From contig QCKH01000013.1 of assembly GCA_003215475.1 (NCBI GenBank), positions 1 through 37,658 on the forward strand: a stretch of 37,658 bases of DNA, in the 5' to 3' direction. Below, piece after piece: positions 1 through 4,054 of this stretch. This DNA comes from Prochlorococcus sp. AG-409-L21 (GTDB taxonomy: Bacteria; Cyanobacteriota; Cyanobacteriia; PCC-6307; Cyanobiaceae). Within the stretch, counting starts at the first letter, position 1; the number at the start of each line of letters is the position of its first letter. A model generated the notes under the pieces. The model searched no databases and had not been told where the DNA came from. It saw only the letters and a list, made by a program, of their open reading frames with translations. Made by a program: the position numbers and the translations under genes.

Positions 1-111
1 AAATTGTGTTACTTGAAAGATTGCAATTAATCCAATTGTGGCTGCTAGTGGATTAAAACCACCAACAGTGATAGTTGCTAATAAATCTGACGAGTGAAAC
101 AGAGAAATCAT
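1..111 (-). CDS. Small one-helix membrane protein next to pcb, 3' part outside window
   Basis: The first 37 codons of a minus-strand gene starting with ATG at 111 are visible; the rest lies left of the window. From the SDL motif (residues 8-10) to QVTQF (33-37) it aligns without gaps to the 70-aa protein at 1486-1698 (SDL 18-20, QVSQF 43-47), with 14 of 30 residues identical including a GGF motif. Residues about 21-35 form a hydrophobic segment. Like its paralogue it lies upstream of, and divergent from, a pcb gene. I do not recognise the family. A membrane-located antenna or photosystem accessory role is inferred from position only. The open frame and the paralogy support a real gene; the reading is limited by the truncation. 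Confidence 0.6.
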   Translation of the reverse strand, partial: MISLFHSSDLLATITVGGFNPLAATIGLIAIFQVTQF

Positions 112-210
112 TGAATCGAGATTTTTGTGGAAAATTTCCTAATAGATAAACATAAAGAGCCCATAAAATCTCATCTCGTTGCATGTTGAAAAATGTTGTT
201 TTATTTCTCT

Positions 211-258
211 TAGATAAAAACCTTTAACTATTCGCACATATTAAGTGAGCTCCATGTA
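211..258 (+). promoter_or_regulatory. Conserved pcb upstream element, copy A
   Basis: A 14-nt identical core (220-233, acctttaactattc) followed by a gc(a/g)catat block and a tgagc block recurs at 2196-2235 in front of the second pcb gene. Copy A ends about 42 nt before the pcb ATG. The spacer to the ATG is also similar between the copies. The element may hold the promoter (the catatta stretch resembles a -10 box) and/or a conserved 5' leader. Function is inferred; the duplication is seen directly. Confidence 0.5.
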
Positions 259-300
259 GTGTTCATGGGGAATAGCGCCTTTTTCGCTCAAAAAGAAAGT

Positions 301-1353
301 ATGCAGACCTACGGAAACCCAAACGTCACCTACGGGTGGTGGGCTGGAAATGCTGGAGTCACCAACCGCTCAGGCAAATTTATTGCAGCTCATGCTGCTC
401 ATACAGGACTAATTGCCTTTGCATGTGGTGCAGCCACACTTGTAGAACTAGCTGGCTTTGACCCTTCATTACCAATGGGTCATCAGAGTTCTCTTTTCCT
501 AGCACATTTAGCATCAGTCGGAATTGGTTTTGATGCTGCTGGAGTATGGACAGGTGTTGGTGTAGCCAATATCGCGATACTTCATTTAATTCTCTCCATG
601 GTTTATGGAGGCGGAGGCCTTTTGCATTCCGTATATTTCACTGGAGATATGCAGGATTCAGAAGTACCTCAAGCTAGAAAGTTCAAATTGGAATGGGATA
701 ACCCAGACAATCAAACTTTTATACTTGGTCATCATCTACTCTTTTTTGGTGTTGCCAATATCTGGTTCGTAGAATGGGCCAGGATTCATGGGATTTACGA
801 TCCTGCTGTTGAAGCAATACGTCAAGTTAATTACAATCTTGACCTTACCCAGATTTGGAATCATCAATTTGATTTCTTAGCTATTGACAGCCTTGAAGAT
901 GTTATGGGAGGCCATGCCTTTTTAGCTTTCTTCCAGCTTGGAGGAGGTGCTTTCCATATTGCAACTAAGCAGATTGGCACTTACACAAAATTCAAAGGTA
1001 AAGATTTACTTTCAGCTGAGGCAATTCTTTCTTGGTCATTAGCAGGAATTGGTTGGATGGCTTGTGTTGCTGCTTTTTGGGCTGCAACAAACACAACTGT
1101 TTATCCAGAAGCTTGGTATGGAGAAGTTTTGCAATTTAAATTTGGAGTTTCTCCTTATTGGATAGATACGGTTCCTGGGGGAACTGCTTTCTTAGGACAT
1201 ACAACTAGAGCCGCTTTGGTTAATGTCCATTACTATCTTGGATTCTTCTTTATTCAAGGGCACTTATGGCATGCATTACGTGCTATGGGCTTTGACTTTA
1301 AGAGATTGCTTGATAGAACCGGACCATTTGGTATACCTAGAACCCTTTCCTAA
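301..1353 (+). CDS. pcb: Divinyl chlorophyll a/b-binding antenna protein Pcb (copy 1)
   Basis: This is a 350-aa light-harvesting protein of the Pcb/IsiA/CP43-like family. It binds divinyl chlorophylls a and b in the thylakoid membrane and passes excitation to a photosystem. Six hydrophobic helices are visible, with family signatures: the N-terminal MQTYGNPNVTYGWW, conserved histidines in helices (HAAHTG, LGHHLLFFG, GGAFHI, NVHYYLGFF) and the YPEAWYG segment of the large lumenal loop. The frame is open from a GTG at 259, but the family N-terminus MQTYG and the purine-rich aaaagaaag just upstream place the start at ATG 301. Compared with copy 2 it lacks about ten residues in the helix IV-V loop. 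A strong hairpin terminator follows. Whether it serves PSI or PSII cannot be decided from sequence. Confidence 0.97.
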   Translation: MQTYGNPNVTYGWWAGNAGVTNRSGKFIAAHAAHTGLIAFACGAATLVELAGFDPSLPMGHQSSLFLAHLASVGIGFDAAGVWTGVGVANIAILHLILSMVYGGGGLLHSVYFTGDMQDSEVPQARKFKLEWDNPDNQTFILGHHLLFFGVANIWFVEWARIHGIYDPAVEAIRQVNYNLDLTQIWNHQFDFLAIDSLEDVMGGHAFLAFFQLGGGAFHIATKQIGTYTKFKGKDLLSAEAILSWSLAGIGWMACVAAFWAATNTTVYPEAWYGEVLQFKFGVSPYWIDTVPGGTAFLGHTTRAALVNVHYYLGFFFIQGHLWHALRAMGFDFKRLLDRTGPFGIPRTLS

Positions 1354-1360
1354 GTTCATT

Positions 1361-1391
1361 AAAAAAGCCCCTTTTAAATAGGGGCTTTTTT
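1361..1391. terminator. Bidirectional intrinsic terminator of pcb copy 1
   Basis: An 11-bp perfect inverted repeat (aaaaaagcccc / ggggctttttt, 9-nt loop) begins 7 nt after the pcb stop. A on one side and T on the other make it usable from both strands. Confidence 0.9.
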
Positions 1392-1412
1392 AATGGCAGT
1401 AAAAACCACATA

Positions 1413-1447
1413 AAAAAGCAGAGCTATGAATATTAGCTCTGCTTTTT
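1413..1447. terminator. Second bidirectional terminator, serves the minus-strand small gene
   Basis: A 14-bp perfect stem (aaaaagcagagcta / tagctctgcttttt, 7-nt loop) lies 38 nt beyond the stop of the minus-strand 70-aa gene and has a T tract in that direction. Its placement supports that gene being real. It sits in tandem with the terminator at 1361-1391. Confidence 0.88.
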
Positions 1448-1485
1448 GAAGGAAATCTAATTTGAAAATGTTCTCTGAACAGAAT

Positions 1486-1698
1486 TCAACGTGACAATTT
1501 TTGTCTTTCTGTTCCTTCAAACTTTTCTGGATCGTTACAGTCTCTTGCATACCAATGGAATTGAGATACTTGAATGATGGCAAGTATGCCAAATACCACT
1601 GGAAGTAGTTGAAATCCACCTGATGGCTTTACTAAACCTAAATCTGATGGGTGAGGTAGTTGCGTTGCGAAATCCAGCAAATGCGAGAAATCAATCAT
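1486..1698 (-). CDS. Small one-helix membrane protein next to pcb
   Basis: This 70-aa protein has one hydrophobic segment (about residues 29-46, LLPVVFGILAIIQVSQF) and a charged C-terminal tail with YARDCNDPEKFEG. The family is not recognised. ATG at 1698 is chosen; a TTG lies directly before it. It is paralogous to the partial gene at the left edge and shares its position upstream of, and divergent from, a pcb gene. It has its own strong terminator 38 nt downstream. By size, topology and neighbourhood it resembles small photosystem or antenna subunits, but no known Psa/Psb signature is seen and the HLIP motif (ExxNGRxAMxGF) is absent. The role is an inference from context. Confidence 0.75.
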   Translation of the reverse strand: MIDFSHLLDFATQLPHPSDLGLVKPSGGFQLLPVVFGILAIIQVSQFHWYARDCNDPEKFEGTERQKLSR

Positions 1699-2272
1699 CA
1701 AGTCAGTTAAAAGTATGAGTTTTATAGCTTAGACTTTAAGCTGTTTTGAAAAAAATTGTTTTTTTGACATTTTAGTAAACCTAAAAAGTCAATTGTTGCT
1801 TCAGGCAATATCAGTTTGATATAAGCTACTTTCCCTTTTGTTGGCTCTAAGAACCAATCATGACCTTCTGACGCGAATCTTAAAAATAGTTTTTAGCGAT
1901 TTATGGAAATCATGAGCCAATGAACTAAATATCCACTTTTTGGCTTTTAGAGAGTTTTTTTTACTTCTTAATAATTTTATTATTATTCTGGCCTTCTTGT
2001 TTTGAATTCATAATTCGAAGTCCATTTAGTAGCTCTGTAATGAAAAAAAAATTCATCAATCTAGCTTATGCATTGCCCTGCAATGCTTTTAGCAAGTGTG
2101 TTAAATGTTTGCGAGTTAAAATTTTTTATTAAAATAGCTTTCGCAGACCAGTTTTTCTTTCGGATAAAAAAATATTTCTTACTAACTAAATAAAGACCTT
2201 TAACTATTCTGCGCATATCTATTGAGCACAGTGTAATCTGCATTGGATATTTGCCTGTATTGCTTAAAAATT
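1699..2272. other. 574-bp spacer upstream of pcb copy 2
   Basis: No convincing gene is seen. The left end must hold the promoter of the minus-strand small gene, and the right end holds the repeated pcb upstream element (2196-2235). It is about three times longer than the matching spacer of copy 1 (112-300). The extra AT-rich sequence is unexplained; a 60-codon minus-strand frame at 2061-2243 overlaps the element and looks spurious. Confidence 0.5.
2196..2235 (+). promoter_or_regulatory. Conserved pcb upstream element, copy B
   Basis: This matches copy A at 220-258: identical acctttaactattc core, then gcgcatat (gcacatat in A), then tgagc and gtgta-like ends. It stops 37 nt before the pcb ATG. 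Conservation in the otherwise divergent upstream regions suggests a shared promoter or 5' leader that co-regulates both antenna genes. Confidence 0.5.
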
Positions 2273-3358
2273 ATGCAGACCTATGGAAATCCAGAAGTTA
2301 CCTATGGATGGTGGGCTGGTAATTCTGTAGTTACCAACCGCTCTGGCCGATTTATTGCCTCTCATGTAGGACATACAGGTTTGATTTGCTTTGCGGCTGG
2401 TGGCAGCACTCTTTGGGAGCTAGCTCGCTACAACCCAGAAATACCTATGGGCCATCAAAGCTCTTTGTTCTTGGCTCATCTTGCTTCTATTGGCATTGGC
2501 TTTGATGAGGCCGGCGCCTGGACTGGAGTTGGTGTTGCAACTATTGCAATTGTTCACCTTATCCTCTCAATGGTTTATGGGGGAGGAGGTCTTCTGCATG
2601 GAGTCCTTTTTGAGGAGAATGTCGAAGATAGTGAGGTTTTACAAGCTAAGAAATTTAAGCTTGAGTGGAATAACCCAGACAATCAGACTTTCATACTTGG
2701 TCATCATTTGATCTTTATGGGTGTTGCTTGTGCTTGGTTTGTAGAATGGGCCAGGATTCATGGTATTTATGATCCTGCTTTAGGTGCAATTCGTCAGGTT
2801 AATTACAACCTTGACCTTTCCATGATTTGGCAAAGGCAATTTGATTTCATTACTATTGACAGTCTTGAGGATGTCATGGGCGGCCATGCCTTCTTAGCTT
2901 TCGCTGAAATTACTGGTGGAGCTTTCCATATCGTTGCTGGATCAACTCCTTGGGAAGATAAAAGACTAGGTGAATGGAGCAAATTTAAAGGGGCTGAATT
3001 GCTTTCTGCTGAGGCTGTTCTTTCTTGGTCCCTTGCAGGAATTGGTTGGATGGCAATAGTTGCTGCTTTTTGGGCTGCAACAAACACAACTGTTTATCCT
3101 GAAGCCTGGTATGGAGAAACCTTGCAACTTAAGTTTGCTGTATCCCCATATTGGGTTGATACAGGTGATCTTTCAGATGCAACAGCTTTTTGGGGACATT
3201 CCACAAGAGCTGCTTTAGTTAATGTTCACTACTATCTTGGATTCTTCTTCTTACAAGGTCATTTCTGGCATGCATTACGTGCATTAGGTTTTAATTTCAA
3301 GAACGTAACTGCTTCAATTGGTAATGAACAGCAGTCCACTTTTAGGATAAATTCTTAA
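2273..3358 (+). CDS. pcb: Divinyl chlorophyll a/b-binding antenna protein Pcb (copy 2)
   Basis: This 361-aa thylakoid antenna protein is a close paralogue of the gene at 301-1353. The N-terminus MQTYGNPEVTYGWW, the six helices, the LGHHLIFMG and GGAFHIV histidine motifs and the YPEAWYGE lumenal-loop segment are all present. The open frame extends upstream to 2243, but ATG 2273 gives the family N-terminus. An insertion with GSTPWEDKRLGEW between helices IV and V, and a longer TGDLSDATAFWG segment, distinguish it from copy 1, so the two probably differ in partner photosystem or expression. It ends at a bidirectional terminator. I cannot assign a specific pcb letter. Confidence 0.97.
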   Translation: MQTYGNPEVTYGWWAGNSVVTNRSGRFIASHVGHTGLICFAAGGSTLWELARYNPEIPMGHQSSLFLAHLASIGIGFDEAGAWTGVGVATIAIVHLILSMVYGGGGLLHGVLFEENVEDSEVLQAKKFKLEWNNPDNQTFILGHHLIFMGVACAWFVEWARIHGIYDPALGAIRQVNYNLDLSMIWQRQFDFITIDSLEDVMGGHAFLAFAEITGGAFHIVAGSTPWEDKRLGEWSKFKGAELLSAEAVLSWSLAGIGWMAIVAAFWAATNTTVYPEAWYGETLQLKFAVSPYWVDTGDLSDATAFWGHSTRAALVNVHYYLGFFFLQGHFWHALRALGFNFKNVTASIGNEQQSTFRINS

Positions 3359-3399
3359 TTGACATTTATTCGATCCCTTTTTTAGAGATCTTTTACTTT

Positions 3400-3434
3400 A
3401 AAAAAGCCTCGTTGGTAAACAACGAGGCTTTTTT
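3400..3434. terminator. Bidirectional terminator between pcb copy 2 and the 67-aa gene
   Basis: A stem of 14 bp (left arm from 3400, aaaaagcctcgtt; right arm aacgaggcttttt to 3434) with a 7-nt loop lies between two convergent genes, 41 nt after the pcb stop and 35 nt after the minus-strand stop at 3470. Confidence 0.92.
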
Positions 3435-3469
3435 TATTGATTCTCCTTTTCGTTTAAATAGAAAGAAAA

Positions 3470-3673
3470 TCAATCGTCAAATTCAGGCTTTGGCTTCTTC
3501 TTAACTTTTCCCGTCAAAAGTTCATAAAGAGCATCTAAAGAGTTGTAAACCTCTTTTAGTTCAGTTAATTCAGGTAATAGGCCGTCTTGGGTAAGCATTT
3601 GATCCAGGTCTCTCAGCTCTTGGCGTATATAACGCAAATGAGAGCTAATCTCTTCTCTTTTACTGGTAGACAT
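3470..3673 (-). CDS. Small soluble coiled-coil-like protein
   Basis: This 67-aa protein is charged and helical throughout: residues 5-56 are rich in E, R, L and K with heptad-like leucine spacing, and the tail is basic then acidic (KVKKKPKPEFDD). There is no signal peptide or membrane segment. It starts at ATG 3673 and shares the terminator at 3400-3434 with the convergent pcb. It looks like a small conserved cyanobacterial hypothetical, but I do not know a function. Confidence 0.7.
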   Translation of the reverse strand: MSTSKREEISSHLRYIRQELRDLDQMLTQDGLLPELTELKEVYNSLDALYELLTGKVKKKPKPEFDD

Positions 3674-3871
3674 TAGTTGTTATCTGATTTAAAAATGTTA
3701 ATCCTCTATGGGGAGCTTGCAAGAGGTTCATTTCTCTATATATGAGTTTCTTTATTAAATCAAAAGTAAAGGAAATCTATTAAAACGTTCATTTCTTAAG
3801 GGAAAAAGACTTTTTTTAGCGCATTTTTAAATTTAATTAGTTATATTCCGATTTACATAAAGATCCTCTTA

Positions 3872-4054
3872 ATGAAAAACGAGTATCAAGCAATATTTTT
3901 AAAGGAATCTGATGATTTAAAAGAGATTAACTTTCAGCGACCTGTCTTTGTTGGTTTAGTGCTTGTTCTTCTGAACTTAATCCTTATGTCTTGCGTTAGC
4001 ATTTATTGGATAAGCCCTAGTGTCCATCAATATATTTCTGGAAGACCCTTATAA
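3872..4054 (+). CDS. Small single-helix membrane protein
   Basis: This 60-aa protein has an acidic/polar N-terminal part (about residues 1-24), one strong hydrophobic helix (about 25-48, VFVGLVLVLLNLILMSC) and a short C-terminal tail with SPSVHQYISGR. The start is ATG 3872; the upstream aagatcctctta is only a weak ribosome site. The family is not recognised. It lies in a row of + strand small genes without overlap. The short polar tail after the helix is typical of small thylakoid or plasma-membrane proteins of picocyanobacteria; function unknown. Confidence 0.65.
   Translation: MKNEYQAIFLKESDDLKEINFQRPVFVGLVLVLLNLILMSCVSIYWISPSVHQYISGRPL

What the first reader, a model, noticed from the sequence alone, without database searches (positions are those of the whole stretch)
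1..3358. Repeated divergent module: one-helix membrane protein gene plus pcb gene
Each of the two pcb genes has, upstream and on the opposite strand, a gene for a small one-helix protein. The two small proteins align without gaps over 30 residues (14 identical; SDL, GGF and QVxQF at equal spacing). The whole module seems duplicated, and the left edge cuts one copy, so more may follow. The small family is not one I recognise. A small membrane partner genetically tied to the Pcb antenna would be a new antenna assembly or linker subunit.
Basis: partly seen in the sequence, partly recalled or inferred. Interest (0 to 1): 0.8.

Follow-up and report, generated by a model that had tools for sequence, protein, structure and literature searches.

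The report
Small membrane partner of Pcb antennas
Deep-living Prochlorococcus carry an undescribed family of tiny membrane proteins whose genes mostly sit beside their extra light-harvesting antenna genes, so they may be a missing part of how this ocean microbe builds its large antenna.

Summary
Window 301-1353 and 2273-3358 are pcb antenna genes (TIGR03041, E about 1e-163). Each has an oppositely oriented small gene upstream: C-type 1-111, cut by the contig end, and A-type 1486-1698. Orthologues show coding selection (pN/pS 0.08 for A, 0.20 for C). Both belong to one family with no match beyond chance in Pfam, NCBIfam, PHROGs, PDB sequences or viral contigs. Strong hits are almost confined to Prochlorococcus genomes with several pcb genes: 31 of 31 near-complete genomes with 3 or more pcb hits, 1 of 109 with 1-2, 0 of 111 with none. 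In 65 named loci, 78 of 96 copies lie within 1 kb of a pcb, against about 1.4% by chance. Linked pcbs all fall in one expansion clade (25 of 47; 0 of 24 others). In eight named genomes an A-type gene follows a PcbE-like gene by 21-23 bases on the same strand. Against strict linkage: 16 of 36 A-type copies lack a pcb within 1 kb, and a two-helix long form is unlinked in 5 of 5 genomes. Best reading: an accessory or linker subunit of the expanded Pcb antenna. The genetic tie is shown; binding and function are inferred.

The parts
1..111 (-). C-type small membrane-protein gene, 37 aa visible, 3' part cut by the contig end
   Evidence: C-type orthologues pN/pS 0.195 (4 sequences)
222..231 (+). pcb upstream element CTTTAACTAT, shared with other cluster pcbs
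301..1353 (+). pcb gene, groups with the SS120-length genome's PcbB (name inferred from gene order)
   Evidence: TIGR03041 E 7.8e-164; tree; naming by accession order in PMC2644788
1369..1447 (.). two terminator-like hairpins between the convergent pcb1 and A-type genes (1369-1384 on +, 1413-1447 on -)
   Evidence: 8 terminator-like sites found in 1-3700, 3.2 expected; several of the 8 lie inside pcb
1486..1698 (-). A-type one-helix membrane-protein gene, 70 aa
   Evidence: pN/pS 0.084 over 12 orthologues; AlphaFold2 helix 31-51, pLDDT about 92-93
2198..2207 (+). pcb upstream element CTTTAACTAT
2273..3358 (+). pcb gene, groups with the SS120-length genome's PcbD (name inferred from gene order)
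   Evidence: TIGR03041 E 1.2e-163; tree

Best explanation
The small genes encode a Prochlorococcus-specific family of membrane proteins. The short forms have one predicted membrane helix, a conserved N-terminal LPHPSDxGLxKPSGGF segment (A and B types) and, in most, a charged C-terminal tail. They most likely act as accessory or linker subunits of the antenna built from the expansion Pcbs (PcbB, D, E, F, H). Proposed mechanism: the small-residue-rich helix packs at Pcb-Pcb or Pcb-photosystem interfaces, and the N-terminal segment lies at the membrane surface and docks to Pcb loops. Several paralogues per genome would let several Pcb types be ordered in one array. Shown: coding, conservation, family, gene linkage, phylogenetic profile, pcb-small gene order on one strand. 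Inferred: thylakoid location, binding, interface role, any pairing of paralogue and Pcb, and the photosystem served (the PSII side is favoured, because the linked Pcbs do not fall in the PcbC/PcbG/IsiA clade).
For: Phylogenetic profile: my tally by handle over the 251 genomes at least 90% complete gives 31 of 31 with 3 or more pcb hits, 1 of 109 with 1-2, 0 of 111 with none (strong hits; 13 weak hits are told apart). Position: 78 of 96 copies in 65 named loci within 1 kb of a pcb, B1 40 of 40; in nine genomes (eight single-contig, and G003 in 7 contigs) 22 of 30 copies (my count); chance level about 1.4%. Linkage confined to one Pcb clade: 25 of 47 against 0 of 24. Eight named loci (L091, L094-L097, L100, L103, L105) with the A-type gene 21-23 bases behind a pcb on the same strand. 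Purifying selection: pN/pS 0.04-0.20 in frame, other frames 0.19-25. One confident helix. Published SS120 proteomics: PcbD and PcbE, the two Pcbs with an A-type gene beside or behind them, rise 2.8- and 3.0-fold under azaserine (PMC5451487, passages).
Against: 18 of 96 copies have no pcb within 1 kb; 16 of these are A-type, in several other genera. The long two-helix form is not within 1 kb of a pcb in 5 of 5 single-contig genomes. 22 of the 47 clade Pcbs have no small gene within 600 bases. Neighbours change: B1 lies by PcbH in the window's genus but 105-125 bases from a PcbE-like gene in 18 named loci. The search profile was built from pcb-linked copies only, so unlinked relatives may be under-found. 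No pigment-binding motif, no structural or expression evidence. Co-occurrence is not independent of descent, since pcb expansion and family share one part of the tree.
Confidence: 0.5

Rival explanations
1. An assembly, pigment-insertion or photoprotection factor for Pcb proteins, working like a one-helix Hlip or a photosystem assembly peptide: present during biogenesis but not a stable subunit.
For: Same linkage evidence; opposite strand to most neighbouring pcbs, so separate transcription, suits a factor needed in other amounts; an Hlip-like gene lies near the cluster (L012 4762-4965, L044 11488-11790, named by me from its NGRWAMIGF motif as recalled).
Against: No Pfam or NCBIfam match, so not an Hlip by sequence; several paralogues per genome suit subunits better than one factor.
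Confidence: 0.22
2. A general membrane protein whose short copies merely hitchhike in the pcb cluster; the ancestral function is that of the unlinked long form and has nothing to do with Pcb.
For: Long form not within 1 kb of pcb in 5 of 5 genomes; standalone A-type genes; B1 changes its Pcb neighbour between lineages.
Against: The family, long form included, is almost confined to genomes with many pcbs; linkage recurs at different loci and Pcb types, e.g. PcbE-like and, in G051, a PcbF-like gene.
Confidence: 0.18
3. A small regulatory or turnover protein, e.g. an adaptor that targets Pcb for degradation.
For: Small size and short charged tails.
Against: Conservation lies in the helix and the N-terminal segment, more like structural packing; nothing positive.
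Confidence: 0.08
4. Not real genes: chance open frames or antisense RNA to pcb flanks.
For: Short, and unknown to the family libraries.
Against: In each class the proposed frame has the lowest pN/pS of six, 0.04-0.20; family found in many genera.
Confidence: 0.01

Closest known systems
Pcb / IsiA / CP43-like antenna family (TIGR03041, PF00421)
   Same: The neighbouring genes 301-1353 and 2273-3358 are ordinary members.
   Different: The small proteins are not members and have one or two predicted helices; Pcb has six (PMC8635728, passage).
IsiA2 with C-terminal PsaL-like domain (Anabaena PSI-IsiA structure, PMC9938196, abstract and passages seen)
   Same: An extra membrane piece couples a CP43-like antenna to a photosystem.
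   Different: There the piece is fused to IsiA and is PsaL-like; here it would be a separate small protein with no library match.
Acaryochloris PSII-Pcb supercomplex (7YMI; described in PMC12661325, passages seen)
   Same: A solved case of Pcb rows, eight per PSII dimer.
   Different: Chlorophyll d organism; PDB sequence searches with the small family found nothing beyond chance.
PsbH (PF00737)
   Same: One helix and similar length (recalled); by eye a shared S-[DE]-x-G-x-V-x-P pattern.
   Different: Profile comparison not significant: probability 1.3%, P 0.039, 10 of 60 shuffles as good.
High-light-inducible proteins (one-helix LHC-like)
   Same: One membrane helix; a gene of this look lies near the cluster.
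   Different: No Pfam match and no NGRxAM motif (recalled) in the alignment.

Membership tests
Pcb antenna (TIGR03041), for the two large genes | Score over the curated cut-off 335 bits | tested here: met
   544.7 and 544.1 bits
Expansion Pcb clade (PcbB/D/E/F/H) | Branching inside that clade rather than with PcbA-like or PcbC/PcbG/IsiA-like rows | tested here: met
   Both window Pcbs lie in the 47-row clade, support 99/98
PsbH | PF00737 match or significant profile similarity | tested here: not met
   No Pfam match; hhalign not significant
Hlip / LHC-like one-helix protein | Chlorophyll-binding LHC motif or Pfam match | tested here: not met
   No Pfam match at E 1 for 37 of 37 members; motif (recalled) absent from alignment
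Known photosystem subunit with solved structure | Sequence match to a PDB chain | tested here: not met
   best E 0.99, unrelated chains
Pcb accessory/linker subunit (proposed) | Physical association with Pcb | not testable with these tools
   Needs purification or cryo-EM
Pcb accessory/linker subunit (proposed) | Gene linkage and co-occurrence with pcb | tested here: met
   met for most copies, with the exceptions told in the report
One-helix membrane protein (short forms) | One predicted membrane helix | tested here: met
   AlphaFold2 helix 31-51 with pLDDT over 90 for the A-type; no separate topology program was run

The most novel reading that the evidence does not exclude
A dedicated family of Pcb linker subunits arose together with the Pcb expansion and diversified into paralogues that work with particular Pcbs (for example A with PcbD and PcbE), which lets deep Prochlorococcus build ordered mixed-Pcb antenna arrays that neither high-light Prochlorococcus nor IsiA-bearing cyanobacteria have. 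(Lowered from 0.3 on checking: B1 stands by a PcbH-like gene in one lineage and by a PcbE-like gene in 18 loci of another, so a fixed pairing is doubtful.)
Probability: 0.25. Interest if true: 0.85.

Novelty: new variant of a known kind. Interest (0 to 1): 0.62.

Why it matters
Prochlorococcus genomes of this kind carry 6-8 pcb genes, and what the extra ones do and how they are arranged around the photosystems is, to my knowledge, open. A conserved partner family gives a direct handle: look for these peptides in purified Pcb supercomplexes and for unassigned single helices in maps. It also gives the Pcb expansion a second gene family with nearly the same distribution, and suggests that the expansion involved more than copies of one gene.

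Tried and rejected
PsbH relationship, suggested by eye (SDLGLVKPSGG against SEYGKVAPGWG): hhalign finds the same register, but probability 1.3%, P 0.039, and 10 of 60 block-shuffled PsbH profiles score as well. Rejected as evidence.

Known family by library: Pfam, NCBIfam, PHROGs and PDB sequences. The best NCBIfam hits have E about 0.03 and lie far under their cut-offs. Viral contigs: 37 stretches matched a pattern, none encoded a relative.

Weak hits in genus g17 (taken as high-light Prochlorococcus, because G105 has the genome length of MIT9301 as I recall it): 13 genomes, E 2.6e-4 to 1e-2. I looked at five of the 13: the hits are GGFNPxAA proteins of about 45 aa, with no pcb seen among the frames of the loci of at most 3 kb. 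Homology is possible but not shown; they are left out of the main counts and given apart.

Structured-RNA reading: no Rfam family at the gathering score in the window. In relatives IsrR scored below its cut-off inside pcb frames; I take this as the antisense match expected for isiA-like coding sequence.

Fold comparison: the short model is a single helix and the long model has mean pLDDT 62, so I ran no fold search; matches would mean little.

Literature: searches listed no paper that I could recognise as being about these small genes; listings and passages only, and only openly licensed PMC papers are held. MacGregor-Chatwin 2019 is not held. Bibby 2003 and Garczarek 2001 were not looked up; they are known to me from citations or recall.
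Full report
WHAT IS THERE. The window is contig 13, from its first base, of a 1.34-Mb, 27-contig, 70%-complete assembly. Genes: C-type small gene 1-111 (-), cut by the contig end; pcb 301-1353 (+); A-type small gene 1486-1698 (-); pcb 2273-3358 (+). Both pcb genes pass the Pcb model at 544.7 and 544.1 bits, cut-off 335. The A gene is divergent from the second pcb and convergent with the first, with two terminator-like hairpins between.

THE FAMILY. In the same assembly a protein search finds four copies: A and C here, and B2 and B1 on contig 20, B2 about 100 bases after a pcb. 14 of 14 genomes of the genus have the family, 1-5 hits each. The genome whose length equals that of SS120 as I recall it (G001) has five copies: A, C, B1 and B2 among three pcbs, and a second A copy 21 bases behind the aligned end of another pcb on the same strand. 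By the order of SS120 accession numbers in PMC2644788 (passages), these pcbs would be PcbD, PcbB, PcbH and PcbE; this mapping is inferred. In those numbers one is free between PcbD and PcbB and four between PcbB and PcbH, which fits the small genes being numbered genes of SS120.

CODING. In-frame pN/pS is 0.084 (A, 12 sequences), 0.072 (second A copy, 6), 0.043 (B1, 10), 0.071 (B2, 9) and 0.195 (C, 4). The other five frames give 0.19 to 24.8. In each class the lowest of these is one antisense frame (0.19-0.40), still above the coding frame of that class. A copies and second A copies are 85-93% identical in DNA over the six genomes compared; within one genome 85-93%, against 88-98% between A orthologues. 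Gene conversion is possible but not tested.

SHAPE. Invariant or nearly invariant residues in 52 sequences: P15 H16 P17 S18 D19 G21 K24 P25 S26 G27 G28 G37 A40 Q46 F47 Y50 P57. AlphaFold2 gives one helix at 31-51 with pLDDT about 92-93; a short N-terminal helix (5-12) and a C-terminal one (57-69) have low confidence. A long form of about 90-110 aa continues after the first helix with GWGL..S..FSYRWKQF.GVQ and a further hydrophobic stretch; its model has two helices there but mean pLDDT only 62. Whether short forms came from long ones or the reverse was not tested.

NO KNOWN RELATIVE. Pfam, NCBIfam, PHROGs, PDB sequences and viral contigs gave nothing beyond chance. In a draw of 291 genomes of the class, 8 matched the long-form profile at E 0.01 or better, all from the window's own taxonomic family, two of them (g17) weakly.

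DISTRIBUTION. Profile A1 matched 103 of 400 genomes of the taxonomic family at E 0.01: 90 strongly (E below 1e-10) and 13 of genus g17 weakly. The Pcb model passed its cut-off in 221 of the same 400 handles (at most five candidates scored per genome). My tally of the two lists for the 251 genomes at least 90% complete: 31 of 31 with 3 or more pcb hits have the family; 1 of 109 with one or two do (G200, one hit at E 6e-11), not counting the 13 weak ones; 0 of 111 without a pcb hit do. Below 90% completeness, two genomes with 3 or more pcb hits lack an A1 match (G053, G307; G053 has a partial long-form hit), and several genomes with one or two pcb hits have the family. This follows the published Pcb expansion: PMC11559063 (abstract and passages) places a major rise in pcb number at the LLVII grade, kept in later low-light clades and lost before the high-light clades. 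The genera with the genome lengths of MIT9313 (g29) and MIT9301 (g17) have at most two pcb hits per genome and no strong family hit.

POSITION. In 65 named loci (all titled Prochlorococcus but one, L113, Synechococcaceae), fetched through the small gene and not through pcb, 96 copies were found: 78 within 1 kb of a pcb, 1 at 1-2 kb, 4 at 2-5 kb, and 13 with no pcb in the DNA held, of which 7 have a flank under 3 kb. B1: 40 of 40 within 1 kb. A: 20 of 36. B2 and others: 11 of 12. C: 7 of 8. Many loci are close relatives, so these are not independent, and the profile behind the search was built from pcb-linked copies only, which may favour linked ones. In nine genomes (G001, G002, G003, G016, G043, G051, G064, G068, G070), 22 of 30 copies at E 1e-5 or better lie within 1 kb of a pcb (my count). 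A random place has about 1.4%, worked out for eight pcbs in a genome of 1.75 Mb. Most neighbouring pcbs are on the other strand; eight named loci have the A-type gene 21-23 bases behind a PcbE-like gene on the same strand, and L111 has one 886 bases behind. Exceptions matter: in several other genera the A-type is a lone gene with other neighbours, and the long form is not within 1 kb of a pcb in G016, G043, G064, G068 or G070. In G064 and L111 a long and a short copy stand in tandem 0.9-2 kb from pcbs, a possible ancestral arrangement.

WHICH PCBS. A tree of 71 Pcb proteins from 13 genomes (of G003 I used only the three cluster pcbs of eight) has one clade of 47 (support 99/98) that holds PcbB, D, E, F and H. 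All 25 Pcbs with a small gene within 600 bases are in it; none of the 16 rows on the PcbC/PcbG/IsiA side (drawn with a midpoint root; it includes both MIT9313 Pcbs) and none of 8 PcbA-like rows is linked. Fisher P is 2e-6, overstated because rows are related; the label needs 12 changes on the tree against 20.8 in shuffles. As cited in PMC8635728 (passages), PcbG rings PSI in SS120 and PcbA flanks PSII in MIT9313 and MED4. The linked Pcbs lie outside the PcbG side, so I lean to a PSII-side or separate array; this is inference. Pairing of a paralogue with one Pcb is not fixed: B1 stands beside a PcbH-like gene in the window's genus, but 105-125 bases from a PcbE-like gene in 18 named loci.

REGULATION. 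Upstream of pcbB, D, H and F there is a shared element (AATAAAGACCTTTAACTATT and variants) that I do not see in the stretches before pcbA, C or E. The A and B1 genes have their own upstream sequences, alike between the genomes shown (by eye). The general promoter scan of window 1-3700 found no more promoter-like sites than shuffles (7 against 9.7). In published SS120 proteomics, PcbD and PcbE rise together under azaserine (PMC5451487, passages); whether the small proteins were seen there is unknown.

MECHANISM AND RIVALS. A one-helix protein whose genes travel with one class of six-helix antenna protein is most simply an accessory subunit that sits at interfaces. IsiA2 of Anabaena shows that CP43-like antennas can use an extra membrane piece to dock (PMC9938196, abstract and passages), and Acaryochloris shows rows of Pcb along PSII (PMC12661325, passages). 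I put 0.5 on a stable subunit, 0.22 on an assembly or protection factor, 0.18 on a hitchhiker with another function, 0.08 on a regulator. No test here separates the first two.

VERDICT. Observation confirmed; interpretation partly supported. An undescribed (in the searches named above), taxonomically restricted membrane-protein family tied to the Pcb expansion of low-light Prochlorococcus. Interest 0.62; it would rise sharply with one co-purification result.

Noticed in passing
window 3359-3470: Of 14 relative loci searched, the 9 that hold the 67-aa gene (window 3470-3673) all have a flavodoxin gene between it and pcbD, and 8 of the 9 also a gene like a 117-aa one (in L052 in two pieces); the window has the 67-aa gene but neither of these. 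The other 5 loci showed none of the three. The rest of the source genome was not searched.
   Followed up: partly
window 222-231 and 2198-2207; L012 5495; L013 6359: Element CTTTAACTAT 72-79 bases before pcbB, pcbD, pcbH and pcbF starts of the source genome, with variants before the same genes of G001; not found in the loci of G001's pcbA, C and E: a possible shared promoter or leader of expansion pcbs.
   Followed up: partly
g17 genomes, e.g. L162 1438-1572, L156 375-509: Proteins of about 45 aa, MxLLxxxxxGGFNPxAAxxG, resemble the C-type at E about 1e-3; two such places in each of five genomes looked at, no pcb seen beside them.
   Followed up: partly
L045 5942-6148 and L044 6966-7175: The two A-type copies of G001 are alike in 68 of 69 residues (read) and 91% in DNA, although they lie about 250 kb apart.
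   Followed up: partly
window 3872-4054: A 60-aa protein with one hydrophobic stretch; proteins with a similar end (VHxxISGxPL) stand just before a lone A-type gene in L108 and L110 (seen by eye).
   Followed up: no
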